DNA from: Zea mays
Lineage: Eukaryota > Streptophyta > Magnoliopsida > Poales > Poaceae
DNA: 64,000 nucleotides
Direction of reading: 5' to 3'
Assembly (NCBI RefSeq): GCF_902167145.1
Contig: NC_050099.1
Span: 241,006,588-241,070,587, forward strand
Below, piece by piece: positions 13,660 to 62,651 of the stretch. The notes beneath the pieces were generated by a model, which searched no databases, was not told where the DNA came from, and saw nothing but the letters and a program-made list of their open reading frames with translations. A program made the position numbers and the translations under genes. The stretch's first letter is position 1. Every line of letters starts with the position of its first letter.

Positions 13660-14873
13660 CTACTCCTCGTGCTCCTCTCCTGCCGGAGCAGCATCCCACT
13701 CGACCGTCCAACCCGGTGGCAGGGTGGTAGGCCAAGTCACACCATCAACCATGTCCTGAAGCGTACCTGCAAAAGTTTTGCCACAAGCAAGGCTGAGTAT
13801 ACTAGTACTCAGCTAGACTTACCCGATGTTAGGAAAATACTCCTCTACCTCTAGACCATGCAGCTGTTTGGCTGAGGGGTTTGGTTTGCCAAAAGCACTA
13901 GCTGTTTCTAAAATCAATTCTTAGCTTTTCAATTTCTAGTATCATTATCTTAGCTAAGTTTGCTCTTTCTAAGCATACATGGTAACAAGCATTTAGTTCA
14001 ATCAACAAATTGTCTCATGTAACCTCATTTTACTTCTTACTCAATGTAGTACAAAGGGTCAAGCAGTCTCATTAGTTGTGAGAAGCAAACAATTTGAATT
14101 GAGTTTTATCCTTGCAAGGTAAACCTAAACACACGACATGTCAGGGTACTCCGACCCCACACATGTCAACCGTCCCCATCGATTCCCCGTTCGCGTCCAG
14201 GCCTCACCGTCTTGGCATACAATGCTCCACTGACCCCGGCTGCCGTCGTGCAGTGACCGCACTTGTACCCACCATAGCTAGCATGGGAGACCCAGTCTCA
14301 GGTCGCGTGAGGGATAAAGTCCGCGCCTGGCTTCACTCAGGTACTAGGTTTACAGGTTACCATATTTTCTGATATGTGCTTAGTATGTTCAAAAGCTTGA
14401 CTCAGGTATCCACACATTAATCCTTAATTTCTTTTTCGCATCTTATGGACAAGGCATCCTCCCTGGATCCAAGTCCATAAACTAACATAGATCCTATTAT
14501 CAAGATGAATACAATCAATTCCTGACCTCGCGCGAGTGCTAGAAAAATCACTCGACTTCTACCGAGATCCTGATTAGCAAAGCTGTTACTCGACCTAGCA
14601 TACTAGTATCCATCTCAAAAAGGAATCCTAAGTTCATGCAACTAGAGGTTTCAAGCAACTCCTACACTTAAGTGCACATTACAATCCTACAAGCATTAAG
14701 TGTAGTAAAGTAGAATATAATAATACGGTTATGCATAAAACTGGGGCTTGCCTTCAATAGCTGGGGCTGCAGGAGATCCTCTATGGCAGCCTCGGGAGCT
14801 TTCTCCTGGTCTTCCTCTTGGACAGTTACTTGCTCGGGGATGAGCACGTACTCTCCGTCAGCGAGATTACAAT
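13660..14873 (-). pseudogene. F 3' LTR copy of the GC-AG mini-ORF (frameshifted)
   Basis: Same exons as in the F 5' LTR: 14873-14752 (NLADGEYVLIPEQ) and 13766-13660 (ending PPGWTVEWD...EEHEE then TAG). The internal exon is 122 nt instead of 123: near 14770 this copy has CTCCTGCAG where the 5' copy has CTCCCCGTAG, so the frame is lost before the GC donor. Splice sites and the hairpin at 13793-13812 are retained. Confidence 0.5.
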
Positions 14874-18268: not shown

Positions 18269-21200
18269 TTACGTACCAATTTCCTTAGGTAGGCAATCGG
18301 GGAAGTTGGATCGCAAGAATTCCTCAGTCTCCCAAGTAGCCTCTTCCTCTGAGTGATTACTCCACTGGACCTTATACATCTTGATCGATTTAGCCCGAGT
18401 TAATCTTTCCTTGCAATCCAGATCTTGGAAGGGTACTCTTGGTACGATAGATCTGGCTCTATCTCCAATTCTAGTTCTGCTATGATCTCGGTCGGCAATC
18501 GAACACACTTCTTCAGGTGAGATACATGGAACACATTGTGGATGGCAGACATTATTAGAGGTAACTTCAATTTATATGCTACGGGTCCACATGCTTCTAT
18601 GATCTCATAAGGTCCAACGTAACGAGGGGCTAGCTTGCCTTTGATTCCAAACCTCTGCACTCCCTTGGTGGGTGATACTTTCAAATACACAAAATCTCCC
18701 ACCTCGAACTGGAGAGGTTTCCTTCTCTTATCATGGTAACTCTTCTGCCTGGCCTGAGCAGCTTCTAGATTCTTCCTGATTAGTTTGACCTTTCCTTCGG
18801 CTTCAGTCACTAAGTCAGGTCCGAAAACTTCTCTTTCTCCAGGCTGAGACCAATTGAGTGGTGTTCTACACCTTCTTCCATAGAGAGCTTCGAAAGGTGC
18901 CATCCTTAGGCTGGATTGATAACTGTTGTTATAAGAAAACTCTGCCAAGGAGAGGTGCTTATCCCAGTTCTTGCCACAATCGATTGCACAAGCTCTCAAC
19001 ATATCTTCAAGAATTTGATTCACCCTCTCAGTCTGACCATCAGTCTGTGGGTGGTAAGCTGAACTTCTGATTAGCTTGGCCCCCAAAGACTCCTGCAGTT
19101 GTTCCCAAAATCTGGCAACAAATTGGGCTCCTCGGTCAGAAACAATAGTTCAGGGCAATCCGTGCAAACACACGATCCGGTCAATGTACAACTCTGCATA
19201 CTTTTGAGCCTTATCAGTGGTGTGCACAGGGAGAAAATGTGCCACTTTCGTCAGTCGGTCCACAATAACCCAAATCGAGTCATGATGACGAGAGGTGTTG
19301 GGCAGACCCACAATGAAATCCATGCTTATGTCATCCAATTTCCACGAAGGTATAGACAAGGGCTGCAAAGCTCCAGCTGATTTCAAGTGGCTGGCCTTTA
19401 TCCTCTGATAGGTGTCACATTCTGATACATATTGGGCTATCTCCCTCTTCATTCCGGTCCACCAATATAGGGGCTTCAGATCATGGTACATTTTGGTGCT
19501 TCCTGGATGCATAGAGAATTTGGAGAGATGGGCCTCATCCAAGATTTTCTTCTTGAGATCCTTGTTCTTAGGAACCACCAATCTGCTTTCAAATGATAAT
19601 ATACCCTTTCCATCTTGGCGGAAACATTTATACTTCTCAGTCTTTTGATGGAGATTCTCCTTAATAATCTGCACTCCCTTGTCACTGAGCTAGGCCATGA
19701 TGATCTGGTCTTGCAAAGCTGGCTCAACGAAAATGTGAGACAAAGCACCAGAAGGAATAATTTCAATTTGCATCTTGCTCAACTCATCACACAAGGTGTT
19801 AATGCGAGAATCCATCAGAACACAATTGCATTGCAACTTCCGACTCAAGGCATCTGCTACCACATTGGCCTTTCCTAGGTGATAATGTACCTCCAGGTCA
19901 TAGTCAAGGCATCAGCTCTAGCCATCTTCTCTGTCTCATGTTGAGATCAACCTGAGTAAAGATATACTTAAGGCTCTTATGATCAGTGAAGATGTTGCAG
20001 TGGGTTCCCATCAAATAGTGCCTCCACATTTTTAATGCATGAACCACTGCTGCCAACTCTAGGTCATGAGTGGGATAATTCTACTCATGAGGCCTAAGTG
20101 CTCTTGAGGCATAAGCAATGACTCAGTTGTCTTGCATCAAGACACAACCTAGTCCAGTGCCAGAGGCATCACAATACACATCAAATGGCTTGCTACTGTC
20201 GGGTTGCGCTAACACCGGTGCTGTGGTCAGATGTTGCCTCAAAGCATGGAAGGCATCTTTGCACTTCTGACCCCAAACAAACTTGGCTTCTTTCTTCAAC
20301 AGCTCAGTTATGGGCTTTGCAATTCGAGAGAAATCCGGAATGAATCTTCGGTAATAACCAGCTAATCAACTCTGAATCTGACGGGCAGTTGTTGGTGGCT
20401 TCCAGTACATCACCTCTTGCACCTTATCAGGATCAACAGTTATTCCTGCCTGAGAGATAGTGTGACCTAAGAATTTGATCTCCTTTAGCCAAAAATCACA
20501 TTTTGATAACTTGGCATAAAGGTGGTGCTCTCGCAGACGTTGAAGCACTACATGAAAATGCCCGACATGTTCTTCTTCGCTCTTCGAGTACACCAAGATA
20601 TCATCGATGAAAACCACTACGGATTTGTCCAGTTCGGGCATGAAAACAGAATTCATCAGATACATGAAATATGCTGGTGCATTAGTCAGCCCGAAAGACA
20701 TCACCAAGAATTCATATAGCCCATATCTGGTTAAGAAAGCCGTCTTCGGAATATCGCTTGCTCGTATCTTGATCTGATGGTAGCCGGAGCGAAGGTCTAT
20801 CTTGGAAAACACTTTGGCTTCGACCGACTGGTCAAAAAGAACATCAATATGATGCAAAGGATACTTGTTCTTGATAGTCACCGCATTGAGAGGGCGGTAA
20901 TCTATACACAGCCTCAGGCTTTCATCTTTCTTCTTTATAAACAAGGCTGGACATCCCCAAGGCGAAGTACTTGGGCGAATAAATCCTTTGTCCAGCAACT
21001 CCTGCAATTGCTTCTTCAATTCTGCCAACTCAGTGGGTGGCATCCGGTAAGGCCTCTTGGAAATTGGTGTCGTTCCCGGTTGCAACTCGATGGCAAATTC
21101 AATATCCCGGTTTGGTGGCATTCCTGGCAATTCATCAGGAAAGACATCTGCATACTCACAGACCACTGGAATCTTCTTCAGAGGTAACTCTGTCATAGAG

Positions 21201-27885: not shown

Positions 27886-29100
27886 CTACTCTTCGTGCTC
27901 CTCTCGTGCCGGAGCAGCATCCCACTCGACCGTCCAACCCGGTGGCAGGGTGGTAGGCCAAGTCACACTATCAACCATGTCCTGAAGCGTACCTGCAAAA
28001 GTTTTGCCACAAGCAAGGCTGAGTATACTAATACTCAGCTAGACTTACCCGGTGTGAGGAAACTACTCCTCTACCTCTAGACCATGCAGCTGTTTGGCTG
28101 AGGGGTTTGGTTTGCCAAAAGCACTAGCTGTTTCTAAAATCAATTCTTAGCTTTTCAATTTGTAGTATCATTATCTTAGCTAAGTTTGATCCTTCTAAGC
28201 ATACATGGTAACAAGCATTTAGTTCAATCAACAAATTGTCTCATGTAACCTCATTTCACTTCTTACTCAATGTAGTACAAGGGGTCAAGCAGTCTCATTA
28301 GCTGCGAGAAGCAGACGATTCGAATTGAGTTTTATCCTTGCAAGGTAAACCTAAACACACGACATGTCAGGGTACTCCAACCCCATACATGTCAACCGTC
28401 GCCATCGATTCCCCGTTCGCGTCCAGGCCTAACCGCCTTGGAATACAATGCTCCACTGACCCCGGCTGCCGCCGTGCAGTGACCACACTTGTACCCACCA
28501 TAGCTAGCATGGGAGACCCAGTCTTAGGTCGCGTGAGGGATAAAGTCCACGCCCGGCTTCACTCAAGTACTAGGTTTACCGGTTACCATATTTCCCAACA
28601 TGTGCTTAGTACGTTCAAAAGCTTGACTCAGGTATCCACACATTAATCCTTAATTCCTTTTTCCCGTCTTATGGACAAGGCATCCTCCTTGGATCCAAGT
28701 CCATAGACTAACATAGATCCCGTTATCAAGATGAATACAATCAATTCCTGACCTCGCGCGAGTGCTAGAAAAATCACTCGAGTTCTACCAAGATCCTGAT
28801 TAGCAAAGCAGCTACTCGACCTAGCATACTAGTATCCATCTCAAAAAGGAATCCTAAGTTCATGCAACTAGAGGTTTCAAGCAACTCCTACACTTAAGTG
28901 CACATTACAATCCTACAAGCATTAAGTGTAGTAAAGTAGCATATAATAATACGGTTATGCATAAAACTGGGGCTTGCCTTCAATAGCTGGGGCTACGGGG
29001 AGATCCTCTATGGCAGCCTCGGGAGCTTGCTCCTGGTCTTCCTCTTGGACAGTTCCTTGCTCGGGGATGAGCATGTACTCTCCGTTAGCGAGATTACAAT
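27886..29100 (-). CDS. F 5' LTR: LTR-embedded two-exon mini-ORF with GC-AG intron, open
   Basis: Internal exon 29100-28978 (123 nt, 1-1 phase), after an ATTAATTAG acceptor, reads NLANGEYMLIPEQGTVQEED and ends TTGAAG before GCAAGC. The intron is 985 bp and ends ACTTTTGCAG. Exon 27992-27886 reads LQDMVDSVTWPTTLPPGWTV, ends EEHEE and stops at TAG. A perfect hairpin CTGAGTAT/ATACTCAG (28019-28038) lies 26 bases before the acceptor. D shares both exon peptides (NLADGEY..PEQ; TLPPGWTVEWD), with many synonymous-looking changes. Upstream coding exon not found; the phase-1 start of this exon suggests one. Confidence 0.55.
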
Positions 29101-31377
29101 CTAATTAATGCAATGAGTAAGATACATGCATGATATGATATGTGCTTTAGCAATTAAACTTGATGGTGAATGATCCACTTAAATCAGATAGAGTTTAATC
29201 TTGCTACTAAAGATTTTTGGTGGTATACTTAGTAATTTAGATCACACTCAGTTAAACTAAGAGGTAAGTCCATTTTGGTGTTCCACTGAATTCTTTATAA
29301 AGCCTTAGTGAGAATTTGTCAAGATTTCAAGTTGAACTTATTGGGGCGAGGTTTATCTTTCATTTCTTTCCCTTTATTTCTTTTGTGTTTTTAAAGTGGG
29401 TTTGAACTACAAGTTGTCTTAATAAGTTTCCAAAAAATCTTTAAAAATTACAGTGGCTTCTTACTGTGTATAATTCTATGTCCTAAAATTTGGGGCTTAA
29501 AGAGTGAAACTATGGACAAAATTATCAAATATTAGGGCAGAATGGGTGCTTTGAACTACAACTACCATTTAACAGTAGGTTATTCTCTAAGACTTATTTT
29601 TGCTGGCATTTAGATGTTATAACATGACTTTGCACAAATTTCTAGCCATTAATACTTATTAGTTATTTTGCTATGATTTTCTAAAGTTTCTAGCCAAAGG
29701 GGTGCTTTCTACTACCACTATATTTGAAAAATATCAAACAACAGATTTCTGATTTTTTTTCTAGCTTCTACTTTGTGCAAGAGCAATCATTCTGAAGTTT
29801 GGCATCTTTTTGCTTAAGGGAGGGGTGGTAGGAATTATTTGAATTAAATGGCCTTTTCCATGAAGTATTGGCAATATGTATTATTTTACATCTTTCAAAT
29901 GGGTTTGCATTTTTCTCTAGTGGCCTATTTCATTATTGATCTAGCAAAATTTTATTTGCCCAATATTGCATTATTTTTGGGTTACTTAGGATTTATTTGA
30001 AACATGACTCATTATCAAGTTCTATTTGTTTACCCTACTTAAAATGATGGGCTGGGGTGGTTATCATTTTTGTAGTGGGGTTCTAGTGGTTACAAGTCCA
30101 CTGGATTTTTATTAACAAATTTGGATCTGTTTTTATAATTCCAATAATTGTTTTCTAGTTGGAATAATGCTAATTAAAACATTTCACTTTAATTCTGTTC
30201 TGGACTAGAGGTCCTTTTATTTTTCCTAGGTTCTCTGTTACTTAAGTAGGCTAGGAAAAATAATTGTACTCAATGTTCATTATTTTCTAATGCCTTTCCG
30301 ATTTTCCAAATTTTGGACAAAAATGGCTTTTAATAGATATCCCTACTAAATTTTTCAATACTGGGGTTCTCACTATTTTTAAACAATGTTTAAATGGGGT
30401 TTGAACATCTACAAATTTTCTTAGGTTCAGCACAGAAGCATAACTAATTTTCTTTAATTTAATAAGGTTTGGTCAGTTTCTGTATTTAATTCCAAACTCT
30501 AAAATTTAGAACAGAAAGCATGAGATTCAGTATTTTTAATTGGTAGTCCATAATATTTATAATCCAGCAAAATTGGTTTGACAATTTTTGGTTAAGTATT
30601 TTCCAAATTATGAATTTCATAAGTTCTCTGTTTATTAAAAAGATTAAACAGAAATGATTAAATGGGAAACAACTTTGCAACAGGGTCCCTGGCGGGTGTT
30701 TTCAAGTTTCCTTACAGACTAGTCCTTGGATTACTATTCAAATGTGTCGCTGACAGTTCAGAAAACCCCCTAGGGTTCCTCTAAACCTAACTCGAGGTCC
30801 TTCCCCCAAATTAAACAGTACCCGCGGTGGAGGAAAGGGTGGAGGGGCTTACCGGCGGCGAGACTGCTCCGGTGAGGTGGCCGAGGGTGTAGGGGAGGTC
30901 CTGAGGGTCGCGGCAATGTGCGGGTCACCATCGGGGATGGTCGGAGTCGGCCGGTCCACGTGCGCAGGCGGGGGAGCTCGTCGGAGGCGAGGAGTCCGGC
31001 CTATCCAGGGCACAATTGATCAATCAAATGGGTCAGAGAGCTTCACCAGGGATCAAGGAAGGTGTGTGTGCGAGGAATTGAAGAACGGCTCATCGGATTG
31101 CTCGGTCTACGCGCGCAGGCGAGCGGCCGAAGTCCGGCGAGGACGATCTTGGTTCTCCGGTGAAGTTCTGCCGGGTCCGAGAGCTTGGGAAGCTTTACAA
31201 GCTCTTGGCGAAGCTAACTGAGCGGCTGGCGCGGCTTGGAAGCGACTAGAGTGGGCTGGCCGCGGTGGCCGAGGCTCGGGTGGCAATGGCGGACGGAAGA
31301 GAACTCGCCGGAGCTAAGGAGGGGCGTCTGGCCGGCGAAGGTGAGCACGGGGTGAGGTGAGGCGCGCTCGGGGAGAC

Positions 31378-31383
31378 TTTATA
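31378..31383 (-). promoter_or_regulatory. TATA box of the F 5' LTR
   Basis: CCTATAAAGTC on the minus strand; it would start the F genomic RNA about 3.8 kb before the PBS. Confidence 0.6.
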
Positions 31384-44975: not shown

Positions 44976-44991
44976 GTAGCCCCCGAGCCTC

Positions 44992-47900: not shown

Positions 47901-48926
47901 GTCAGCATGGACAGAGGCAGAGTTGCCTCGAAAAGAAGATTTGGTCGGCCAAAGCCAGGCCGGGCCATCCACTGGCGGGACCGACGCCAGAGTCGAGTTG
48001 CCGAGGCCACGAGCCGGGCTGATGTCCTCGGGGGACAGCTGGCTGAGGCTTCGGGGTGGCCGACCGAACTGTCTGCTTGAGCCGGATTCCTGGATGAGAC
48101 CCTAGCGGCGATGGCCCAGGTGCGATGCTGATGTCGTCCTTCAGAGTGGAGATCCTCCGACCACGTTGCCGTCCGAGGCTAGGTCGGACTTCGCCGAAGG
48201 TGTAGTTGACGCCGAGGGTGCTGCTGCTCCCTTCAACTGTCAAGGTCCAAGCCTGCAGGATCGGATTATCTTGTAGTGTGCATATGTTTTCTGCGGCCGC
48301 CGAGGCCCAAACATACTGTCGTCGTGTTGTAAAGCTGCGTTTCTTTTCCTCTTGTTTCGAGTGTCTGGACTTATTTATCGGTAACAGAATTGTTTGTCCG
48401 AGCGAGAGTTACTTTTCACGGAAGGTGATGAGTGAGGTATCCGTATCCCGGAGGCGTAGGAGTCCCTTGGCTCGGTCGGCCTTGCCGCTTACGTGTACTC
48501 TTACTCGTCCGTAGGATTCTGCTATTGATATAGTCGAGAAGGCCCGAAAAAATCGTTTCGGCAGAAGAATTTTCGAGCGTGAAGACTTGTTCGGTCCGCG
48601 GAGTCACCTATCCGAGCGTGAGTTACTTATCGCAGAAGGTGATGAGTGAGGTATCCGTATCTCGGAGGCGTAGGAGTCCCTCGGCTCGGTCAGCCTTGGC
48701 TGCTTACGTGTACTCCGTCGTTTTCAGGACCCCACTTTCGAAGTAGTCGAAAAGCACGAAAGACGTTCTGGCAGAAAAGATCTTTTTCGAGGAAAATTTT
48801 GACGTGGAGGGGGTTCCCCCCTTCTAGCCCCCGAGGGAGGGTCGGGCTTTGCCGAGGCAAGGCTGACCCTTCCTTGATGGTTAGACTTTGTGTGTGAACG
48901 AGGTGTACGAACGACTTGAAAGCATC
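44992..48926 (-). other. I: 3.9-kb region between pol and 3' LTR, no clear gene
   Basis: GC-rich. It includes near-repeats of GCCAGCCTTCGAACC...CAGTAGTGGGCGCGG (45730-45920) and three copies of a 75-80 bp cassette with GAGTGAGGTATCCGTATCCC (47772, 48429, 48645). A + strand TTTAAAAGG at 46810 and an ATG at 46844 sit where an antisense gene would start in related elements, but the frames beyond are short and I cannot support a protein. Confidence 0.6.
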
Positions 48927-50690
48927 TTAAGGGTAGAAGTGACGTAGCTGTCGGATGTTCCAAGCGTTGTTGTAGACCTCGCCTTGACTGTTGGCCAGCT
49001 TGTACGTCCCGGGCTTCAGAACCTTGGCGATGACGAACGGCCCTTCCTAGGGAGGTGTGAGCTTGTGCCGCCCTCGGGCGTCTTGTCGTAGCCGAAGCAC
49101 CAAATTGCCCACCTGGAGGTCTCGGGACCGAACCCCTCGGGCGTGGTAGCGTCGCAGGGACTGCTGGTACCGCGCCGAGTGTAGTAAGGCCATGTCCCGA
49201 GCCTCTTCCAGCTGGTCCAGTGAGTCTTCTCGGTTAGCTCGATTGTTTTGGTCGTCGTAGGCCCTCGTCCTCGGGGAACCGTATTCTAAGTCTGTGGGCA
49301 AGATGGCCTCGGCCCCATGACTAGAAAGAACGGTGTGAAGCCCGTGGCTCGGCTCGGCGTTGTCCTCAGACTCCAGACCACCGAGGGGAGCTCCTTCATC
49401 CATCGCTTGTCGAACTTGTTGAGGTCGTTGTAGATCCGCGGCTTGAGCCCTTGCAGAATCATGCCGTTGGCACGCTCTACTTGCCCATTCGTCATAGGGT
49501 GAGCCACGGCGGCCCAGTCCACCCGGATGTGGTGATCCCCGCAGAAGTCCAGGAACTTTCTGTCGGTGAACTGGGTGCCGTTGTCGGTGATGATGGAGTT
49601 CGGGACCCCAAAACAATGGATGATGTTGGTGAAGAACGCCACCGCCTGTTCGGACCTGATGTTGTTTAGGGGTCGGACCTCGATCCACTTGGAGAATTTG
49701 TCGATGGCGACCAGCAGGTGCGTGTAGCCCTCGGGTGCCTTCTGTAAGGGGCCGACGAGGTCCAGCCCCCACACAGCAAACGGCCAGGTGATGGGTATCG
49801 TCTGTAGGGCCTGAGCGGGCAAGTGTGTCTGCCTCGCATAGAACTAACACCCTTCGCAGGTGCGGACAATTCTAGTGGCGTCGGCCACCACGGTCGGCCA
49901 TGTTGGTGATGGCCGCGATTTTCTCCGGGTTGGCCTCGATGCCCCGCTCGGAGACGATGAACCCCAAGAGCATGCCTCGGGGGACCCCGAAGACACACTT
50001 CTCGGGATTGAGCTTTACGCCTTTCGCCTTGAGACACCGGAATGTCGTTTCAAGGTCGGAAAGGAGGTCGGAGGCTTTCCTCGTCTTGACTACGATGTCA
50101 TCGACGTAGGCCTCGACCGTTCGACCAATGTGTTCGCCGAACACGTGGTTCATGCACCTTTGGTATGTCGCACCCTCATTCCTCAAACCGAACGGCATGG
50201 TAACATAGCAGTACATGCCGAAAGGTGTGATGAAAGAAGTCGCGAGCTGGTCGGACTCTTTCATCCTGATTTGGTGATACTCTGAGTAGGCATCGAGGAA
50301 AGACAGGGTTTTGCACCCAGCAGTGGAATCCACAATTTGATCGATGCGAGGCAGAGGGTAGGGAACTTTTGGACATGCTTTGTTTAGACCAGTGTAGTCT
50401 ACACACATCCGCCATTTCCCTCCTTTCTTTCTCACAAGCACAGGGTTGGCAAGCCATTCGGGATGGAATACTTCTTTGATGAACCCTGCCGCCATTAGCT
50501 TGTGGATCTTCTCGCCTATGGCTCTGCGCTTTTCTTTGTCGAATCGGCGCAGAGGCTGCTTCACGGGTCGGGCTCCAGCTCGGATATCCAGCGAGTGCTC
50601 GGCGACATCTCTCGGTATGTCGGGCATGTCCGAGGGACTTCACGCGAAAACATCGGCGTTTGCGCGGAGAAAGTCGACGAGCACTGCTTC
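48927..50690 (-). pseudogene. I pol: RT joined to integrase, RNase H deleted
   Basis: RT 50627-49880: PVLVRKKGGKWRMCVDYTGL, SFLDAYSEYHQI, FGLRNEGATYQR and catalytic AYVDDIVVK. After KIAAITNM the text passes directly to the integrase zinc-finger end (RTCEGC, 49850) and core: VWGLDLVGPL, TDNGTQF and MTNGQVERANGMILQGL (49822-49286). A shifted frame then carries the C-terminal part to 48927. RT thumb/connection, RNase H and the HH half of the zinc finger are missing. Stops: TAG 50693-50691, TGA 50642-50640 (FA*SPSDMP, TGG changed), TAG 49846-49844 and TAG 49049-49047 (TGG changed). Not functional. Confidence 0.85.
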
Positions 50691-52718
50691 CTATTTGGGA
50701 TCGAGCTCGGAGTCGATCTGGATCTGCTTGGAGGCGTCGTTGCTGGGGTCGAGAGGGACGGACTTAACCGTCTCCGCTGGCTCGAAGTTGCCGGCATGGC
50801 GCTTCACGTCTGGCGCCTCCTTGGAGAGGCTCTCCAGGTCGGCGATGAGGGCCTCGGATTCGGCGAGGGCCTCGGCGTACTCCACGCACTCCACGTCGCA
50901 TTCGTACGCGTGTCGGTACGTGGGGCCGACGGTGATGACCCTGTTGGGGCCCGGCATCTTGAGCTTGAGGTAGGTGTAGTTGGGGACGACCATGAACTTG
51001 GCGTAGCATGGCCTCCCCAACACTGCGTGGTAGGTTCCTCGGAACCCGACCACCTCGAACGTGAGGGTTTCCCTTCGGAAGTTGGAGGGAGTCCCGAAGC
51101 AGACAGGTAGATCGAGTTGTCCGAGGAGCTGGACGCGTTTCCCGGGGATGATCCCGTGGAAAGGCGCCGCGCCCGCCCAGACCGAGGACAGATCGATCCG
51201 CAGGAGCCCGAGGGTCTCGGCATAGATGATGTTGAGGTTGCTGCCTCCGTCCATGAGGACCTTGGTGAGCCTGACGTTGCCGACGACGGGGTCAACAACG
51301 AGCGGGTACTTCCCCAGGCTCGGCACGCGGTCGGGGTGGTCGCCCTGGTCGAAGGTGATGGGCTTGTCGGACCAGTCTAAGTAGACTGGCGCCGCCACCT
51401 TTACCGAGCAGATCTCCCGACGCTCTTGCTTGCGGTGCCGAGCTGAGGCGTTCGCCACTTGCCCACCGTAGATCATGAAGCAGTCGTGGACCTCGGGGAA
51501 CTCTCCTGCCTTGTGATCCTCCTTCTTATCATCGTTGCGGGCCCTGCCACCCTCCGCAGGTGGCCCGGCCTTGTGAAAGTGGCGCCGAAGCATGGCGCAC
51601 TCCTCAAGGGTGTGCTTGACGGGCCCCTGATGATAGGGGCACGGCTCCTTGAGCATCTTGTCGAAGAGATTGGCGCCTCCGGGAGGTTTCTGAGGGTTCT
51701 TGTACTCAGCGGCGGCGGCGCGTTTTGCTTGCGACTTCTTCTTGTCTTTCTTCTTGGTGCTGCGCTGAGTGGACGCCTCGGGGACATCTTCCGGCTGGCG
51801 GCCCTGGGGCTGCTTATCCTTCCGGAAGATGGCCTCAACCGCCTCCTGGCCAGAGGCGAACTTGGTGGCGATGTCCATCAGCTCGCTCGCCCTAGTGGGG
51901 GTCTTGCGACCCAGCTTGCTCACCAGGTCACGGCAGGTGGTGCCGGCGAGGAACGCGCCGATGACATCCGAGTCGGTGACGTTGGGCAGCTCGGTGCGCT
52001 GCTTCGAGAATCGCCGGATGTAGTCCCGGAGAGACTCTCCCGGCTGCTGGCGGCAGCTTCGGAGATCCCAGGAGTTCCCAGGGCGCACGTACGTGCCCTG
52101 GAAGTTGCCGGCGAAGGCTTGGACCAGGTCATCCCAGTTGGAGATCTGCCCCGGAGGCAGGTGCTCCATCCAGGCTCGAGCGGTGTCGGAGAGGAACAGG
52201 GGGAGGTTGGGGATGATGAGGTTGTCATCGTCCATTCCACCCAGGCGGCAGGCCAGCCGGTAGTCCGCGAGCCACAGTTCCGGCCTCGTCTCCACCGAGT
52301 ACTTTGTGATAGTAGTCGGGGTTCGGAACCGGGTCGGGAACGGCGCCCGTCGTATAGCCCGGCTGAAAGCCTGCGGACCGGGTGGTTCGGGCGATGGACT
52401 CCGATCTTCCCCGCTGTCGTAGCGTCCCCCACGCCTGGGGTGGTAGCCTCGGCGCACCTTGTCATCGAGGTGGGCTCGACGTTTGCGGTGATGGTGCTCG
52501 TTGCCGAGGCGACCCGGGGCCGCAGGCGCCGTGTTGCGCGTGCGCCCGGTGTGGACCGAGGCATCCCGCATGAATCGGGAAGTCGTGGCGCGATGTTCCG
52601 AGGGGTACCCCTGCCGTCGGGAGGCAGAGCTTTTGGCCCGTCGGACCGTGGCATCCTCCAGGAGATTCTTGAGCTCTCCCTGGATATGCCGCCCCTCAGT
52701 GGTTGATGGCTCCGGCAT
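50691..52718 (-). pseudogene. I gag-protease
   Basis: Open for 675 codons from 52718. Arg-rich N-part; gag core with LWLADYRLACRLGG, FLSDTARAWMEHLPPGQI, LVQAFAGNFQGTY and ESLRDYIRRFSKQRTELPNV (about 52260-51960); then a basic Lys/Gln linker, and PCPYHQGPVKHTLEEC (zinc-knuckle-like, 51640-51590). Protease KVLMDGGSNLNIIYAETL (51265-51210) has DGGS where DTGS/DSG is usual, as in Tat elements generally. It ends at TAG 50693. Reading in the same frame extends upstream to the TAG at 52823-52821 (CAG to TAG). Confidence 0.85.
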
Positions 52719-52823
52719 CGCGCGGAGAAGTATTGCCGCTGCAGCCAGGTTCTGGTCGACCCCACTGGAAACCGGTGGCGGCCTTGCCCTGACATCGTCG
52801 GCGATGCGGTGCTGGATACCCTA

Positions 52824-53740
52824 GGGTAGATGACGCGCTTCTCCGGCCGGAGGTTGGCCTGCCCATTCCTGCCCGATGTCCCGGCGGAACGGCTCAAGTG
52901 TTCCTGCTCCCTCGTCGAGCCTGGCCTGCATCTCGTGGATTTGCTCGAGCTGTGAGTCCTGACCCCCCGCAGGGACTGGGACCACAGCTAGCTCCCGTAG
53001 GATGTCAACGCGAGGCGCAGGCCTAGGGGATCACCGTCCTCCGGTATACCAAGATGGTTGCCTTCGCCGAGACCCCCTAGATTGACGTGGAAACATTCAC
53101 GACTTGGGCCGCAGACCTCGTCGCCGAAGCTGCGGCTACCGTCGGAACAGTCGGAAAGGCAGTAGTCGCATGTGGTCATGAAGTCCCGCATGGCACTGGG
53201 GTTACCAAGTCCGGAGAAATCCCAACAAAAGTCGGGCTCGTCATCTTCCTCGGAACCCGAGGGCCCGTAGGTCGAGACGACTGTCAGCCGGTCCCAGGGT
53301 GACCGCATACCGTACCTTGGAGGGTTTGGACTCGCCTCTATGAAAGCGTCCACCGAAGCGAAGTCGCTTGGTGGGTCGAGGCTGAATCCAAAAGGCACGA
53401 GATGGGAATCGGTCGGTACCACTTGGTCGACGGGCGGTGACGAAGTCACGTCAAGGGCAAACTGCACCGTCGTCTCAGGTACGAGGGTGACGCCCAGCAA
53501 GTCTTTTGCGAGCGTGCTGGCGTCATCCGTCCGCTTGGAGTTGGCGTGTTGTGGGGAAACGGCGCTCGTCTTCGTCTCAGACGCGAGGTCGATGCCCGAC
53601 GTGTCCCCCGTTGGGGCGCCGGCGTCGTCGACTCGCTCGACAGCCGACGAGGTGCCGCCTCCTACTTGGCCTTGGTTGCCCCGCCTCCTCCGTCGGCGGG
53701 GGAGGCGACGGGACAAACCCGAATGTTGTTCTTCCGCCAC
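52824..53740 (-). pseudogene. I gag N-terminal extension
   Basis: ATG at 53740 (MAEEQHSGLSRRLPRRRRRR). An acidic/Ser-rich region and FCWDFSGLGNPSAMRDFMTT (53235-53180) run to a stop at 52990-52988. Near there the frame changes, and REL-AVVPVPAGG...EQIHEMQARLDEG (52985-52910), a coiled-coil piece, leads to the TAG at 52823-52821 and then to gag. This start and linker are usual in maize Tat elements of this type, as I remember them. Confidence 0.7.
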
Positions 53741-53955
53741 GTGGGGAAGACGTCGTCGATTCCGCCGCCGGCGGGCGGGTTGTCAGCCGCCATTGTCGCT
53801 GTCGCGCGGCGGGGGAAGGAGTATCATGTCGCAGCTGCCGTCGAGGGACATGAACTCAAGACTCCCGAAACGGAGCACCGTCCCAGGCTGGAAAGGTTGC
53901 TGGAGACTACCCATCTGGAGCTTGACGGGAAGCTGTTCGTCAACACGCAGCAGGC

Positions 53956-53974
53956 CCCTACCTGGCGCGCCAAC
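53956..53974 (-). other. I primer-binding site
   Basis: TTGGCGCGCCAGGTAGGGG on the minus strand directly after the LTR end GCCGACA. Confidence 0.85.
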
Positions 53975-55468
53975 TGTCGGCGTTTCGACCCCGGGGGGTC
54001 CCTGGACCGACGAGTAAATTGTCGCCGCGTGCCCCAGCCCAGATGGGTCAGCGCGAGACGGAGCGCGAAGGGGGGGAAAAGCCGGAGGGAGACAGGCGTA
54101 AAAGGGAAAACCTGCGGCCTTCGTGTTTGTCCCACGCCCAGGTCGGGTGCGCTTGCAGTAGGGGGTTACAAGCGTCCGCGTGGGAGGGAGCGAGAGGCTT
54201 ACGCGCGCACCGTCCCGTCCTTCCCCGCGCGGCCAACCCTCCGTAAGAGGGCCCTGGACCTTCCTTTTATAGGCGTAAGGAGAGGGTCCAGGTGTACAAT
54301 GGGAGGTGTAGCAGTGTGCTAACGTGTCTAGCAGAGAAGAGCTAGCGCCCTAAGTACATGCCGTCGTGGCAGCCGGAGAGGTTTTGGCACCCTGTTCGTG
54401 TGATGTCGTGGCCGTCGGAGGAGCGCTGGAGCCTTGCGGAAGGACAGCTGTCGGGGCTGTCGAGTCCTTGCTGACGTCTCCTTGCTTCCGTAAGGGGGCT
54501 GAGAGCCGCCGTCGTCATGGAGCATGTGGGGCGCCATCATTGTTTGTTTTACCGGGGCGAGCCAGATGGGACGCCGGTCTTGTTCCCCATAGCTAGAGTT
54601 AGCTAGGGGTAGGGTAATGATGGCCCCTCCTATGACGTGGTCGGTCCGAGCCCTGGGTAGGGCGAGGCGGAGGCTCCTCCGAGGTCGAGGTCAAGTCTGT
54701 CTTCTGAGGTCGAGGTCGAGTCCGAGCCCTTGGGTCGGGCGAGACGGAGATCGTCGGCTGAGGCCGAGGTCGAGTCCGAGCCCTGGGGTCGGGCGAGGCA
54801 GAGTTCGTCGTCTTCCAGGGCCGAGCCCGAGTCTGAGCCCTAGGTCGGGCGAGGCGGAGTTCGTCGTCTTCCGGGGCTGAGCCCGAGTCCGAGCCCTGGG
54901 TCGGGCGAGGCGGAGTTCGTCGTCTTCCGGGGCTGAGCCCGAGTCCGAGCCCTGGGTCGGGCGAGGCGGAGTTTACTATGGCGCCTGAGGCTGGACTTGG
55001 CCGCTGTCAGCCTCACTCTGTCGAGTGGCACAGCAGTCGGAGCGACGCGGGCGGCGCTGTCTTCTTGTCAGACTGGTCAGTGGAGCGGCAAAGTGACTGC
55101 GGTCACTTTGGCTCAGTCGACTGAAGGGCGTGCGTCAGGATAAGGTGTCAGGCCACCTTTGCATTAAATGCTCCTGCGGTACGGTCGGTCGTCGTGGCGA
55201 TTTGGCCAAGGTTGCTTCTAGGCGAAGACCGGGCCTCGGGCGAGCCGAAGGTGTGTCCGTTGCTTGAGGGGGCCCACGGGCGAGACGTAGATCCTCCGGG
55301 GTCGGCTGCCCTTGCCCGAGGCTGGGCTCGGGCGAGGCGAGATTGTGTCCTTGAGTGGACCGAGCCTCGACTTAATCGCACCCATCAGGCCTTTGCAGCT
55401 TTGTGCTGATGGGGGTTACCAGCTGAGATTAGGAGTCTTGGGGGTACCCCTAATTATGGTCCCCGACA
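53975..55468 (-). repeat. I 5' LTR
   Basis: 1,494 bp; TATAAAAG at 54272-54265; the 56-bp array at 54717-54972. Differs from the 3' LTR by scattered single-base changes. Confidence 0.9.
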
Positions 55469-56671: not shown

Positions 56672-59430
56672 ATGTCTTCTTCCTCATCTGCTGCGAGTGC
56701 GTCACCGGCCGATCCGTCGTCCGAGGATACCCTGAGCGATTTGGCAGCGATGGAGTTGCAGCCGGGCCACACGGTGGAGTTCAGCACCTTGAGGATTTCC
56801 TCGGTTCGTGTGCAGGAGATGCAGCAGCTTGGGTACTTCGGTGACGGTGTTGGGCGCGTTTCGGGCGCTGAGGAGATTCCTGAGCCTGAGGGCGAATTAG
56901 TTGTGTTCGAGGCATTCTTCATCGCCGGCCTTCGCCTTCCAGCACATCGTTTCGTGGTGGAGGTCTTGTAGAGGTTCGACGTCCAGGTCCACCAGTTGAC
57001 ACCTAACGTCGTGGTTGCCCGGGCGAAGTATTCTGGGCGGTGACTTCGTACGGCGGTCAGCCATCCGTGGAGGTCTTCGCCAAGAACTATTGTCTGCACT
57101 GGCAAAAGAGGAAAATTGGTAATAAGATTGCACAATTTGGATCGTGCACCTTCACGCCGAGGACCGGAAAGACTTTGGCAGAAGTTGTGGAAATAGTCCC
57201 CTGCGCTCGGAACAAGTGGGGCAACTGGTGGGACTATTGGTTTTATGTCTCGGGAGGGGAAGTCGAAGATTTCCCAGGGCTCCCTGTGGCCGTTATGTGC
57301 TCCCACTATTACGTGGCATTCCCACCATTTGAGGTGGCGGAGGAAGATGAGGACGAAGGGGCCCTCCGGTATGCTGCCCGCATGAGTAGCGGGCGTGATC
57401 TGGTTGAGGAGTTCATTGGATATGGAGTGTGGCCCTTGGCCCACGATTGGGTACTGGGCGAAGTGTGCCCTCGCCAGATGCCTACCTTGGGCGGGCAGTT
57501 GGTGCAAAGTCCTACCTTCGCCTTGGATTTGCGCGGCCGAAACCCAGCCATGTTTGTGCGTGAAGTAGAGGATGGAGCAGTGAAAATTGTGGGGTGATAT
57601 GTGTCGAGGACGGAGACTTTGCGGAGTTGGGATATTCGCGGTTCCAATGTCCGTTTGAACCGTGTTTTCGAGTTGAACCATCTGTCGTATGGCGGTTACC
57701 TGGGAGACGACGCTGCTACTACTGTCGGTCGCCGGGGAAAAAAGGCGGTGGCTTCGGTTGAGGAAGGCCCTTCATGGGAAGCCGCGCCGGCTGTGGTCAC
57801 TAAAAAGAGAAAACTAGGTACTACGGCTGAAGGGTTGGGGGTCTTCGATTGTTTTGCTGTGGATTTAATGGGAACTTGTGCGGCCCCCGGGGGAAAGATG
57901 TCTTCGCTCGAGCTCCGGGAATCTTCGGCGCGAATGCTAGAGGTTACCGAGGGTCGCTGGCCTAGGAATGTTCCAATCCCTCGGGCATCCGGTGAGGACA
58001 TTTTTACGTCTCGCTCAGCCCGTGAGATGAAGATTTTTCCTTATAGACGGAATGTTGTTGTTGTATCGGCAGTGATGAATAAAGATCGCCAAGATGCGCG
58101 GAAATGTCGGGTGTTCACTAGGGTCGAGGACCCTAGTCGCAAGGTCAAGAAGGCGTGGGGGATCTCGAGGTCTACCGCCATCGGCAGTAGCAAACCACCG
58201 CCAGCTGTGAAGCCTGTCGTCCCTGGCCCCAGCAAGCCTTCATCGGGTGCGAAGGTCGTCGCTCTCGGCTCGAGCAAGCTGCCCTCTGTTGAGCCCACGC
58301 AGGAGCGAGGGCCATCGTCTCCAATGTGCACTGCCGAGGCGGTGGCAGGTGGGGCCGAACTCTCCATGGACATCTGCGTGGATGACTACAACGTGGGTGG
58401 GGTCATGATGTTTGATGCCCGCATGGGGCGAGGGCTTGCCGGTGAGTCTTTATTATTTTATTATTATATGTGTATTTTTTTGATGGGGTCTGGGTCTTGA
58501 ACAAGACTGTGATGCAGAGTCGGATGCTGGGCAAATAACTGTTGTCCAGGCGCCGGTGGCGGCCGCGTCGGTCGCGGCGACGACCGAGACGAAGGGTGCT
58601 TCGCAGGACCCGTGATCCAAATTTTGCGCCAGTCGTGAGATTGCTTCAGCCGCCGCTGCTAAAGACGTGGCGGGCTCAGTTGCGCAGCAGCTGAGGCATG
58701 TAAGTCGTCTTGGACTTCGTCATTTTTTGTGTTTGTGCGATTGCGAGTTTGATGGACTTTTTCATGGCAGGCGGCTGCCTTCGTTGATCATGTTGTGTCG
58801 GGCGTTCTGACCTCGGAGTTTGCTACCGAGAGGCAATGACTTGAGGGGGTAATTAAGCACCTCCGAACGCAGCACACGGAAGCTGCGCGGGACAAGTCAG
58901 CTGCGGAAACAAGAGTCGCAGACTGATGGAGAAGTTGTCGGTTGCGAAGGCCGAGAGAGAGGATCTTAGCCGTCTGTTGGCGGCGAAGAAGAAGGATGCG
59001 GATAGGGCCTGTGCTGAGGCAGAGGCCGCACGTGTCGAGGCCAAGCTCGCGCGTGCTGAGGCCAATCTCGCTCGCCAACATGCTGAGGAGGCGGAAGCGA
59101 GTCGCAGCAGTCTGCGCGGCTGCCTGGACAAAGCGGAGGCCTCTACTCGCGTAGAGGTCGACCGTACGCATGCACAGCTCGTGGACGCGTACCGGCAGCT
59201 TGGTGCGCGGACTGCTCCCTTTAATGCGTCCGGTAAGGATGTAGGCCTCCGCTCTCTCGGATGGCTGCAGGAGGAGCTAGAGGTGCTCCCGACGATTGTG
59301 ACGGGCCTCATGTCCTTTGCCTCGCTCATCACCTGTGAAGGGGTCGTGAATGCCTTGTCTCGTGAGGGATGCAGGCACTTCGAAGTCTTTGACCATTCGG
59401 ACGCAGACTTCGAACGCAGAAGCCTCTTAT
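56672..59430 (+). pseudogene. H antisense gene (PF04195-like), three exons, broken
   Basis: ATG 56672 (MSSSSSAASASPADPSSEDT). Core: GLRLPAHRFVVEVL, VHQLTPNVVV, then WDYWFYVSGGEVEDFPGLPV (56930-57280) and LRSWDIRGSNVRLNRVFEL (57616-57670). Then a basic, Pro/Ser-rich linker, introns 58442-58517 and 58700-58770, an Ala/Glu coiled coil (58926-59160) and a C-terminal domain (LGWLQEELEVLPTIVTGLMS) to TAG 59430. Lesions: TAG near 56968, a one-base loss near 57030, TGA near 57597, TGA at 58613 and 58837 (both fit CGA to TGA), and a frame change near 58920. Same architecture as the Z1 gene; related proteins are annotated in grasses as putative gypsy-type transposon proteins. Function unknown. Confidence 0.75.
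58442..58770 (+). other. Two short introns in the H antisense gene
   Basis: Intron 1 58442-58517 (76 bp): GCCG^GTGAGT ... TGATGCAG, phase 1, restoring frame into ESDAGQITVV. Intron 2 58700-58770 (71 bp): GCAT^GTAAGT ... CATGGCAG, phase 0, into AAAFVDHVV. Both have consensus sites and T-rich interiors. Confidence 0.7.
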
Positions 59431-59541
59431 AGCAAGGAAACCCTAAATGATTAACTAACTTAGTTTTCTGCACTAAGGTATAATTGCTATTAAATTCTAC
59501 ATATCATAGCATACATATATCTTATTCATTGCATTCGATAG

Positions 59542-60757
59542 ATTGCAACCTCGCGGACGGAGAGTACATCCTCGTGCCAGAGCAAGGAGTTGCTCAGGAG
59601 GTAGCCCCGGATCCAGCACCAGAGCCTGCCCCAGAGGATCTGCCTGCCCTAGCTTTGGAAGGCAAGCCCCGGTTTTATGCATAACCTATCTATTATGCTA
59701 TTTTACTACACTTAATGATTGTAGGATTGAATGAGCACTTAAGTGTAGGAGTTGTATGAAACCTTAGTTGCATGAACTCAGGATTCCTTTTTAAGATGGA
59801 TACTAGTATGCTAGGTCGAGTAGCTGCTTTGCTAATTAGGGATCTCGGTAGAAGTCGAGTGATTTTTCTAGCACTCGCGCGAGGTCAGGAATTGGTTGTA
59901 TCCATTTCTTTTCATATCATAAGGATGATGGTATGTGGACGACGGTCCATGGGGATGTGTTGTCTACGAGACGGAAATTGGAATAAGGATTAAGGTGTGG
60001 TACCGTGTGTCAAGCGTTTGAACGTACTAAACACATACCGAGAAATATGGTAAATCGGTAAGCCTAGTACCTGAGTGAACCTGGCAGCAGATTGCCCTCC
60101 TCACGCGACCTGAGACGTGGTCTCCCATTCCGGTTATGGTGGGTACAAGTGTGGTCACTGCACGACGGCAGTCGGGGTCAATGGGGCATTGTACGCCAAG
60201 GCGGTGAGCCCCTCTCTGCTGACGGGGGATCGATGGGGACGGTTGGTGTGTGTGGGGATGGAGTGCCTCGCCACGTCGTGTGTTTAGGTTTACCTTGCAA
60301 GGTTTAAAAACTCGATTCGAATCGTCTGCTTCTCATAGCTAATGAGACTGCTTGATCCATGCTGCTACATTGAGTAATAAGTGGAAATGAGTCGACTGGC
60401 AAAAGATGTTGATTGCTAAAAATGTTTGATACCATGTATGAATAGCTAGGTACACATCTAGTTTAAAAGGATCATACTAAAACTTGAAAAGCTAAAACTT
60501 GATTTTTAGACTCAGCTAGTGCTTTTGGCAAACCAAACCCCTCAGCCAAACAGCTGCATGTCTAGAGGTAGAGGAGTAGATTCCTCACACCGGGTAAGTC
60601 TAGCTGAGTATTAGTATACTCAGCCTTGCTTGTGGCATCATTTTTTTCAGGTTCTCTGGAGGACATGGTTGCTGGAATGACTTGGCCATCCACCTTGCCA
60701 CCGGGTTGGACAGTCGAGTGGGACCCTACCTCAGCTGAGGAGGAGCATGAGGAGTGA
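59542..60757 (+). CDS. D: LTR-embedded two-exon mini-ORF with GC-AG intron, open
   Basis: Internal exon 59542-59661 (120 nt, 1-1 phase) after CATTCGATAG; reads NLADGEYILVPEQGVAQEVA then Pro/Ala/Glu-rich, and ends TGGAAG before GCAAGC. Intron 989 bp, ending TTTTTTTCAG. Exon 60651-60757 reads LEDMVAGMTWPSTLPPGWTV, ends AEEEHEE, stop TGA. A perfect hairpin (CTGAGTAT/ATACTCAG, 60604-60623) precedes the acceptor by 27 bases. Compared with F it differs in sequence but keeps frame, length class, splice sites and stop, which is what selection on the product (or recent descent from an active copy) would leave. Confidence 0.55.
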
Positions 60758-61073
60758 TGGGACAGGCTTCCCCGTCTCTCCGCTTACTTATCGTTAGTTT
60801 TATTCCGCTGCATTCCGAACAATGAGCACTACTTTTGCAAAAACTCCGATGATGATGATGTAATAAATTTAATACTCCTTAATGTATGGTTTTATGTTTT
60901 ATTGTATTTGCTCTGTGCCTCACCATTGAGTGAGTACGTGGTACTTGATCCTGTTAGTGGCCTTGTCGGACTCGATCCGAGGGACTGACGTTTTATTCCC
61001 ATTTAAGTGTGGTCTAGCCTTTAAGGTGGGACTTAGGCACTTAAGTTGGAATAATTCGGGCGGTTCCGCCACA

Positions 61074-61090
61074 GCTGGTATCGGAGCTCG
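61074..61090 (+). other. D primer-binding site
   Basis: GCTGGTATCGGAGCTCG right after the LTR end TTCCGCCACA; same class as in F. Confidence 0.8.
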
Positions 61091-61491
61091 TACCACCACA
61101 GAGGAATCAATAAACTATAAATACCATCCTTTTTCAAAGTAAAACTTGGTAGAAACAAATGTTGGATAGATCATAGGACGATTAGGATAGACCTAGGACG
61201 TGACGCCTTAGGATGATAGAAGGGTAGCTAGGTGGCTAATTAAGTAAGCCCTACAGGCTACTATAAGGGATGGGAGTTCCTTCCTATTCCCTCTAAGTTG
61301 ATGTGAGGTCATTTAGGACGAGCATGCATGCATCCTTAATTAAACTATTTAATAAGTGGGTAAGAACTTTAATACATAATGATGACAAATTAAGTACCCC
61401 CAGTACCCTTGTCGTAGCTATAGCGAGGCTGAGTTGCGATCCCTTTTTATTTTATAATTCTTTTCTTTTACTTACGCTTAATCATACACAG
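61091..61491 (+). other. D leader between PBS and pre-gag ORF
   Basis: Non-coding. It ends TCATACACAG directly before the pre-gag ATG at 61492, a splice-acceptor-like junction. Confidence 0.5.
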
Positions 61492-62361
61492 ATGACTTCT
61501 CACGGATCCTCAGACGAAGGGAATGCACAGTCCCACACTGACGGACTTGCCCGAGAGGGTTTTCCTCGTATCTTGTGGGAGGTACTTCAGGGAGCTGGCT
61601 ACACGACGCCTCCCCAGTACACGGTGCAGCTGTTTGAGAAGCATCGAGTGCCCAGCTGTAGGGTGAGGATGACCCTGGAGCCTCATCCCCTATAGCCAGG
61701 CTGGCGTTCGTTGGATTCGGAATCTTTTGGATACAGGGCTCAGGATACTATCGAGGCGATTGCTCTTCACGGACTGACCACCTTCTGTGGATTCCACCCC
61801 TTGGAGCTGTCCACTCACCCCATTGGTTTGTTCCCCGCGGAGAAGGAGGACGACCCAATGTGGAAGGACCGAGTGGAGCATGCCAAGGATATATGGGCTA
61901 TCTACCCAGATCAGACTGCTCACTTGACGGTGCGGTGCATGAATGCCCTGTATCGTCTGTAAGTGATGCGAGGAGAGGCAATGTCTCATCTGATGGCACT
62001 GTTGGAGGCTACCAAGATCACCTTGGATAACAGGGAGGAACTTGTAGTAGACTTGTCCACTGAGATGGCGGAAAAAGACCTACAAGTGGAGCAGTTGTCA
62101 GGTGAGATCTACGAGCTTGAGGAGCTAGTGGGAACCAGGGAGAACACCATCGAGGTTCTCGAGGATCAGCTTATCAACACTCAGCAGCAGCTTGCGGAGG
62201 CTAACCAGCATCTAGATATGCACCACCAGGAGATCCAGGACATGGAGGCCAACGAGGATGTCGACATCGAGGGAGGAGAGGAGCCTGCCTCTAGCTTGGA
62301 CACTGCTGGCTCAGGGAGACCACCTTCCCCCGAGTCGAGCGTTGCCTCGTTTGCCCACTAG
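61492..62361 (+). pseudogene. D pre-gag ORF (ORF0): globular N-domain plus coiled coil
   Basis: MTSHGSSDEG start; FPRILWEVLQGAGYTTPPQY, TFCGFHPLE and LFPAEKEDDPMW (N-domain); TAG at 61693-61695 (CAG to TAG by comparison with F) and TAA at 61960-61962 (CAA to TAA); then a coiled coil (MAEKDLQVEQLSGEIYELEE, 62060-62240) and an acidic, Pro/Ser-rich tail ending at 62361. It aligns over its full length with F 27186-26395. Unknown role; a coiled coil upstream of gag could be a structural or RNA-binding accessory. Confidence 0.75.
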
Positions 62362-62651
62362 GTCGCAGGGATAGAGTTAGAAGTCTGTGACGGTAGAACT
62401 CCTCGAGACTAGCTTTTGCACCCTTGGGGTACTAGGCTAGTTAGAGTTGAGTCTTTTGAGTTATTGATGTAATCATGCCAAACTCTTTTGGAAATATGGG
62501 TGATGAACGATGTCAGATTTAATTTAAGAAGAAAAGTTTATGCCATGTGGAATCTTTTATAATTATGCAAGCATATATTGGTTTCACCCCTGTGACTCTT
62601 TCACCACGATTTAACGGAAATATAATATTAAGAATATGCATACTTTTTCAG
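62362..62651 (+). other. D intergenic segment with splice acceptor before gag
   Basis: 290 bases without a gene. Ends GCATACTTTTTCAG at 62651, abutting the gag ATG. Confidence 0.55.

What the first reader, a model, noticed from the sequence alone, without database searches (positions are those of the whole stretch)
59542..60757. A two-exon mini-gene with a GC-AG intron hidden inside chromovirus LTRs
In D the LTR holds a 1-1 phase exon (59542-59661), a consensus GC donor (GAAG^GCAAGC), a 989-bp intron ending TTTTTTTCAG, and a second exon with an in-frame stop (60651-60757). F's 5' LTR has the same on the other strand (29100-28978, 27992-27886), with clear peptide similarity (NLADGEY, TLPPGWTVEWD). 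LTRs are normally taken as non-coding. Here the frame, splice sites and stop survive while flanking gag and pol are broken. Seen: the open frames and sites. Known: GC donors need a strong AG^GCAAG context, which is present. Inferred: translation and function.
Basis: partly seen in the sequence, partly recalled or inferred. Interest (0 to 1): 0.92.

Follow-up and report, generated by a model that had tools for sequence, protein, structure and literature searches.

The report
Spliced protein exons inside retrotransposon LTRs
The long end-repeats of an abundant maize mobile element, usually thought of as control DNA only, hold two small spliced and selectively maintained protein-coding exons that most likely add a tail to the element's own enzyme and can also be spliced onto host genes.

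Summary
In 52 genomic LTR copies from two subfamilies about 20% apart, the GC donor is kept in 51 and both exons are open in 32. On a tree built from the intron alone, amino-acid changes are depleted on internal branches only in the predicted frame (N:S 46:48 internal, 151:78 terminal, p=0.003; no internal stops, 13 terminal); shifted frames and intron do not show this. Annotated maize proteins hold the two exons joined at the predicted GC-AG junction, behind different upstream exons in the predicted phase, so the splice sites work. It is not a free-standing mini-gene: the LTR leader offers an in-frame ATG in 1 of 7 LTRs read. Pol ends before the LTR in a phase-1 donor-like G|GTAYGT, kept in 25 of 27 elements read. 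Best reading: 3'-terminal exons of the element, spliced from the end of Pol into the 3' LTR, giving a roughly 75-aa acidic tail. The Pol-to-LTR junction was not seen in RNA. An unexplained conserved block lies in the intron.

The parts
59542..59661 (+). LTR exon 1 of D, phase 1-1 (CNLADGEYILVPEQ...ALEG)
   Evidence: Open in D; same exon aligned in 51 further copies; joined to exon 2 in annotated maize proteins
59662..60650 (+). GC-AG intron
   Evidence: Donor GC in 51 of 52 copies, GT in 1; exon 2 acceptor AG in 49 of 52; junction matches P0164-P0167
60651..60757 (+). LTR exon 2 of D with stop codon (SLEDMVAGMTWPSTLPPGWTVEWDPTSAEEEHEE*)
60862..60867 (+). AATAAA downstream of the stop, candidate polyadenylation signal
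   Evidence: read directly; role inferred
59421..61073 (+). what is left of D's 5' LTR; matches the 3' part of D's own 3' LTR at 97.6%
61076..61087 (+). primer binding site TGGTATCGGAGC (tRNA-Met type, recalled)
59662..59920 (+). unusually conserved block at the 5' end of the intron
   Evidence: 0.95 identity D-F in one 200-base window against 0.80 in the window with exon 1; alignment
60594..60599 (+). second conserved donor-like site CGG|GTAAGT, 57 nt before exon 2
   Evidence: GTAAGT in 45 and GTATGT in 1 of the 46 copies where it was located; not located in 6 of 52
28978..29100 (-). exon 1 in F 5' LTR
27886..27992 (-). exon 2 in F 5' LTR, TAG stop
14752..14873 (-). exon 1 in F 3' LTR, broken by a 1-nt deletion (ends derived from its 122-nt length)
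13660..13766 (-). exon 2 in F 3' LTR, open
31378..31383 (-). TATAAA in F 5' LTR, candidate promoter
   Evidence: read; TATAAA at the corresponding place in 5 of 5 D-like LTRs
30852..30853 (-). leader donor CTCGCCGCCG|GTAAGCC in F 5' LTR
   Evidence: donor present in 7 of 7 LTRs of 6 elements; in-frame ATG in 1 of the 7
18269..18277 (-). end of F pol: G|GTACGTAA, phase-1 donor candidate that contains the Pol stop

Best explanation
The two exons are 3'-terminal coding exons of an abundant RIRE8/Retrosat2-like chromovirus. In RNA running from the 5' LTR into the 3' LTR, a donor at the very end of pol (G|GTAYGT, phase 1, right after what reads like the chromodomain) is spliced over about 3.2-3.4 kb to the exon 1 acceptor in the 3' LTR, then through the GC-AG intron to exon 2. 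Unspliced RNA makes Pol ending in LPKGIGT; spliced RNA makes Pol with a roughly 75-aa acidic tail ending in WDPTSAEEEHEE. Because both LTRs are copied from one template, the exons also sit in the 5' LTR, where the same acceptor can serve a non-coding leader intron. When a copy lands in or near a gene, host exons with a phase-1 donor can be spliced into it. Shown: coding constraint in the predicted frame, use of the exon 1 acceptor and of the GC-AG junction in annotated maize proteins, conservation of the donors. Inferred: the Pol-to-LTR junction, the tail on Pol, leader splicing to this acceptor, and any function (integrase targeting or Pol processing).
For: Frame-specific depletion of amino-acid changes on internal branches, with intron and shifted-frame controls negative. 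D-F5 dN/dS 0.28. GC donor in 51 of 52 copies. P0164 (LOC100278178), P0166/P0167 (B6SMY3; LOC100275057, exon 2 cut short by a stop after 10 residues) and P0165 hold exon 1 joined to exon 2 at the predicted junction; P0164 enters exon 1 with N (A|AT) and P0167 with D (G|AT), the predicted phase. The genomic exon matching P0164 residues 1-51 ends CTCCA|GTAAGT in phase 1. Pol ends of 27 elements: GTAYGT in 25, GCATGT in 1, GTACAT in 1; in 9 the codon reads ATG instead of ACG and in 2 the stop was lost, with the GT kept in all of these but the one that turned GC. Identity between subfamilies rises from 0.52-0.62 to 0.80-0.90 at the exon 1 acceptor.
Against: No joined Pol-LTR protein was seen, but the protein searches only reached candidates of about 24-178 aa. 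The exon 1 acceptor scores modestly (rank 79 of 512 AG sites, counted from 0) and stronger acceptors lie in the presumed leader intron (score matrix recalled). In this genome no same-strand copy of the LTR exons lies within about 49 kb downstream of the exon matching P0164, so that fusion was not rebuilt here. That the annotated proteins rest on cDNA is recalled. MK-type test p=0.24 and 0.10. Counted as distinct events, frame-breaking gaps are only slightly rarer in exons. The intron is more conserved than the exons between subfamilies, so something other than protein is also constrained.
Confidence: 0.6

Rival explanations
1. A self-contained LTR gene: the LTR promoter (TATAAA), a leader exon, exon 1 and exon 2 make a small protein from any LTR, solo LTRs included.
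For: The leader donor CCG|GTAAGCC stands in all 7 LTRs read and TATAAA in the 6 looked at, the phase fits, and base composition turns from GC-rich to AT-rich at the donor.
Against: In-frame ATG in the leader in 1 of 7 LTRs; the frame is open for only 18 aa in the 5 D-like LTRs. One search, whose query held the leader peptide, listed no joined protein among its best 120 of 199 (read).
Confidence: 0.15
2. An unspliced ORF of 57-58 aa (MHxSYSLHSxDCNLADGEY...EGKPRFYA*) is the real product of exon 1; exon 2 is separate.
For: Upstream codons and the KPRFYA end are conserved in many copies.
Against: Past the donor the frame is often not kept: of 165 exon 1 proteins 63 end KPRFYA-like, 61 run into a second frame and 24 into a third. 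D has ATA in place of the ATG. Joined proteins exist.
Confidence: 0.1
3. No protein: the 3' third of the LTR is conserved for RNA or DNA reasons, and the open frames are a by-product; the joined proteins are gene-trap artefacts of splice sites that serve the leader.
For: The intron block 59662-59920 is more conserved than the exons; the MK-type test is not significant.
Against: Frame-specific depletion with negative controls and shared frame-breaking gaps depleted in the exons; little covariation (1 of 88 pairs) and z -1.7 for a fold of the block.
Confidence: 0.15

Closest known systems
CRM group A centromeric chromoviruses (PMC3059260, passages seen)
   Different: There by a reading frame that extends into the LTR; here Pol stops before the LTR and the tail would need two introns, one of them GC-AG
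RIRE8 / RIRE3 / Retrosat2 (Tekay or Del lineage; PMC3485330, parts 1-3 of 8 and passages seen)
   Same: LTRs of about 3 kb or more, an ORF0 before gag, an early TATA box with a very long R region (Retrosat2), similar LTR ends
   Different: No LTR-encoded exon is mentioned in what I saw
Spliced plant LTR elements: Ogre, EVADE, BARE1, Bagy2 (PMC12786077, PMC7264820, PMC6317226, passages seen)
   Same: Splicing makes a second protein form or message
   Different: The introns placed in those passages (Ogre, EVADE) lie in the internal region; no coding exon in the LTR is mentioned there
LTR-encoded retroviral genes such as MMTV sag and the U3 part of nef (recalled)
   Same: Protein coded in the LTR and expressed from spliced RNA
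   Different: They have their own start codon (recalled); none was found here

Membership tests
RIRE8/Retrosat2-like (Tekay lineage) chromovirus | LTR longer than 3 kb | tested here: met
   F LTRs about 4.68 kb; D 3' LTR about 4.38 kb
RIRE8/Retrosat2-like (Tekay lineage) chromovirus | ORF0 between PBS and gag | tested here: met
   D 61492 onward, with an in-frame stop; similar DNA and an ORF at 26707-27186 minus in F; no Pfam match for the F ORF; not compared with RIRE8 ORF0
RIRE8/Retrosat2-like (Tekay lineage) chromovirus | Chromodomain at the C-terminus of Pol | tested here: inconclusive
   Sequence reads like one (YKVQWSHHSVEEATWETEDFL); not confirmed by a profile; SH3-like domain found upstream
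RIRE8/Retrosat2-like (Tekay lineage) chromovirus | RT tree placement | not tested
   no tree of RT domains was built
CRM-type extension of Pol into the LTR | uninterrupted reading frame from pol into the 3' LTR | tested here: not met
   TAA stands at the end of pol, before the LTR, in 6 of 6 elements aligned
Self-contained LTR gene | conserved in-frame start codon within the LTR transcript | tested here: not met
   1 of 7 LTRs
Spliceosomal GC-AG intron | GC donor in a strong context, used in RNA | tested here: met
   AGGCAAGC in 29 of 32 copies, GC in 51 of 52; joined protein sequences; reads themselves not available

The most novel reading that the evidence does not exclude
One splice acceptor in the LTR is a two-way switch: in the 5' LTR it trims the leader, in the 3' LTR it appends a tail to Pol, so splicing decides between two integrase forms. 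The same portable 'last exons' cassette gives host genes new C-termini wherever the element lands.
Probability: 0.3. Interest if true: 0.88.

Novelty: new variant of a known kind. Interest (0 to 1): 0.78.

Why it matters
Plant LTR elements are said to lack introns apart from few cases (PMC12786077, passage seen), and LTRs are usually annotated as non-coding. A family with thousands of first-look candidate matches in one genome (10585 and 7920; only 40 scored each) carrying selected, spliced coding exons in its LTRs would mean that part of the element proteome is missed by standard annotation. It gives a concrete candidate module next to the chromodomain, and a ready-made 3' terminal exon pair that host genes can pick up.

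Tried and rejected
Self-contained LTR gene with a leader start codon: set aside, no conserved ATG. Single-exon 58-aa ORF: set aside, the frame is often lost past the donor. Relatives in viral contigs and bacterial or archaeal genome contigs: none confirmed. Further copies of the exons in the window beyond the three LTRs: none seen in the part of the listing shown. Pfam on the joined proteins: none. Rfam on 59400-61200: none. Fold of the joined tail (P0165 with 9 relatives): mean pLDDT 65, one short helix, so no fold search was run. Conserved RNA fold in the intron block: weak. ORF of 45 aa or more in the intron block: found in 3 of 6 copies only. Distinct-event count of frame-breaking gaps without splitting shared and private: exons 4 in 227 columns against intron 30 in 982 among D-like copies, only a weak difference. 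The per-copy count (5 in 6583 nt against 211 in 28681 nt) repeats inherited events and should not be used alone. With 32 copies the tree test gave 38:37 internal against 101:47 terminal, p=0.008. Upstream exon of P0167: not placed, the genome search did not complete.

Full report
What is there. The window lies in a 2.18-Gb genome (C4:241006588-241070587); named proteins that match its LTR exons are from Zea mays. Element F is on the minus strand with two LTRs of about 4.68 kb, 95.6% identical. Element D is on the plus strand: only the last 1.65 kb of its 5' LTR is in the window (59421-61073), followed by a primer binding site, an ORF0 with an in-frame stop and gag. Its 3' LTR, outside the window, was fetched as L009 and is 97.6% identical over that stretch.

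Is it coding? D against F5: dN/dS 0.42 for exon 1, 0.16 for exon 2, 0.28 together; amino-acid changes fewer than in random placements of the same number of substitutions (20,000 draws, P=0.0008). For a family-wide test I took 30 of the 40 D-like matches listed and 22 of the 40 F-like matches, aligned them, built a tree from the intron alone, and counted changes by parsimony. Some of these are the two LTRs of one element. In the predicted frame, internal branches (changes passed on by active elements) have 46 nonsynonymous and 48 synonymous changes and no stops; terminal branches (mostly decay after insertion) have 151 and 78, with 13 stops (Fisher one-sided p=0.0034; exon 1 alone p=0.087, exon 2 alone p=0.009). 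The two other frames of the exons give odds ratios of 1.38 and 1.06 and the three intron frames 1.25-1.71, so the effect is specific to the frame. Frame-breaking gaps shared by two or more copies are 2 in the exons and 32 in the intron, private ones 6 and 11 (p=0.012); without that split the densities differ little. Both exons are open in 32 of 52 copies. Against: a fixed-versus-polymorphic (MK-type) count points the same way but is not significant (fixed 15:11; all variants p=0.24; singletons 96:36, p=0.099), and the intron is more conserved than the exons between subfamilies. The copies are the best matches to the window's sequences, so old decayed copies are under-represented.

Is it spliced? 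The GC donor is kept in 51 of 52 copies, the exon 1 acceptor AG in 48 and the exon 2 acceptor AG in 49. A profile of the joined D and F peptides found 1358 proteins with E up to 10 among 1436 candidates; of the best 120 listed, four hold exon 1 joined to exon 2 at the predicted junction: P0164, LOC100278178 of Zea mays, whose 75 aligned residues are 89% identical to D; P0166 and P0167, which are B6SMY3_MAIZE and LOC100275057, the first contained in the second, both ending early in exon 2; and P0165 from a 1,685-base JGI contig, which starts within exon 1. P0164 enters exon 1 with N (A|AT) and P0167 with D (G|AT): different upstream exons, same acceptor, same phase. The genome exon that matches residues 1-51 of P0164 (C2:160212748-160212900, 94%) ends CTCCA|GTAAGT in phase 1. 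No same-strand LTR copy was found in the following 49 kb of this assembly, so the fusion itself is not rebuilt here. That these maize records stem from full-length cDNA is my recollection, not a tool result. Among 165 proteins holding exon 1, the frame beyond the donor splits into three (63, 61, 24; 13 other, 3 joined, 1 unmatched), as expected if coding ends at the donor.

What lies upstream? Two phase-1 donors are candidates. (a) In the LTR: a TATAAA and about 500 bases later CTCGCC[AG]CCG|GTAAGCC, the donor present in 7 of 7 LTRs read. But an in-frame ATG exists in only one of these seven, and the frame is open for just 18 residues in the five D-like LTRs, so this leader cannot start the protein in most of those read. 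(b) At the end of pol...FLPKGIG|GTACGTAA. I read the pol end of 27 elements: 5 D-like and F, 18 more (17, L049), and 3 F-like; one further locus (L087) gave none, L088 is F again, and L050 and L051 lie side by side and may not be independent. GTAYGT stands in 25, GCATGT in 1 and GTACAT in 1. In 9 of them the codon is ATG instead of ACG and in 2 the stop is lost, with the GT kept in each but the one that turned GC. This pattern fits a splice site better than a protein end. The Pol frame reaches this donor in the right phase, directly after what looks like a chromodomain (read by eye; not confirmed by a profile).

Structure of the LTR. In 200-base windows identity through the 5' part of the LTR is 0.46-0.81 between D and L012 and 0.46-0.73 between D and F. 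From the exon 1 acceptor on it is 0.85-0.95 between D and L012, and 0.70-0.95 between D and F with a fall to 0.59 after exon 2. So the 3' third of the LTR is a more conserved module. Within it the first 260 bases of the intron are more conserved than the exons; no Rfam family, one compensated pair of 88 and only a weak folding signal were found there. A second donor, CGG|GTAAGT 57 bases before exon 2, is GTAAGT in 45 of the 46 copies where it was located. These remain unexplained.

Reading. The exons belong to the element's last coding unit: most likely Pol with an optional 75-residue acidic tail made by splicing into the 3' LTR. The joined proteins have no Pfam match, and the P0165 part of the tail is predicted as mostly unstructured; its role is open, and integrase targeting or Pol processing are guesses. 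The gene-trap fusions are a by-product that shows the splice sites work.

Known or new. CRM group A elements also code beyond pol into the 3' LTR, as one open reading frame in intact elements (PMC3059260, passages). Plant LTR elements are described as generally without introns, with Ogre and EVADE as exceptions (PMC12786077, passages). My ten searches listed, in the titles and abstract starts that I saw, no paper on coding exons or a GC-AG intron inside a plant LTR; they cover open-licence PMC papers only, so this is not proof of absence.

Noticed in passing
59662-59920: Block at the start of the GC-AG intron is about 95% identical (one 200-base window) between subfamilies whose exons differ by over 20%; cause unknown.
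   Followed up: partly
60594-60599 and 60604-60623: A strong conserved donor CGG|GTAAGT (45 of 46 copies where located) and an inverted repeat CTGAGTAT-TAGT-ATACTCAG (exact in 37 of 52 copies) lie just before exon 2.
   Followed up: partly
43482-55468: An insertion bounded by two 1,494-base repeats (96.9% identical) is flanked by the 5-base duplication TCTAG; its inside was not studied.
   Followed up: partly
61492-62371 and 26707-27186 (-): ORF0 between primer binding site and gag in D (with an in-frame stop) and a similar stretch in F; no Pfam match for the F ORF.
   Followed up: partly
L039, L040 (C2:160221401-160241400): Two D-like LTRs on the opposite strand downstream of the host exon that matches LOC100278178, with pol-like DNA between them.
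   Followed up: partly
L058, L059: Pol stop at the putative donor lost by a one-base deletion while the GT stayed.
   Followed up: no
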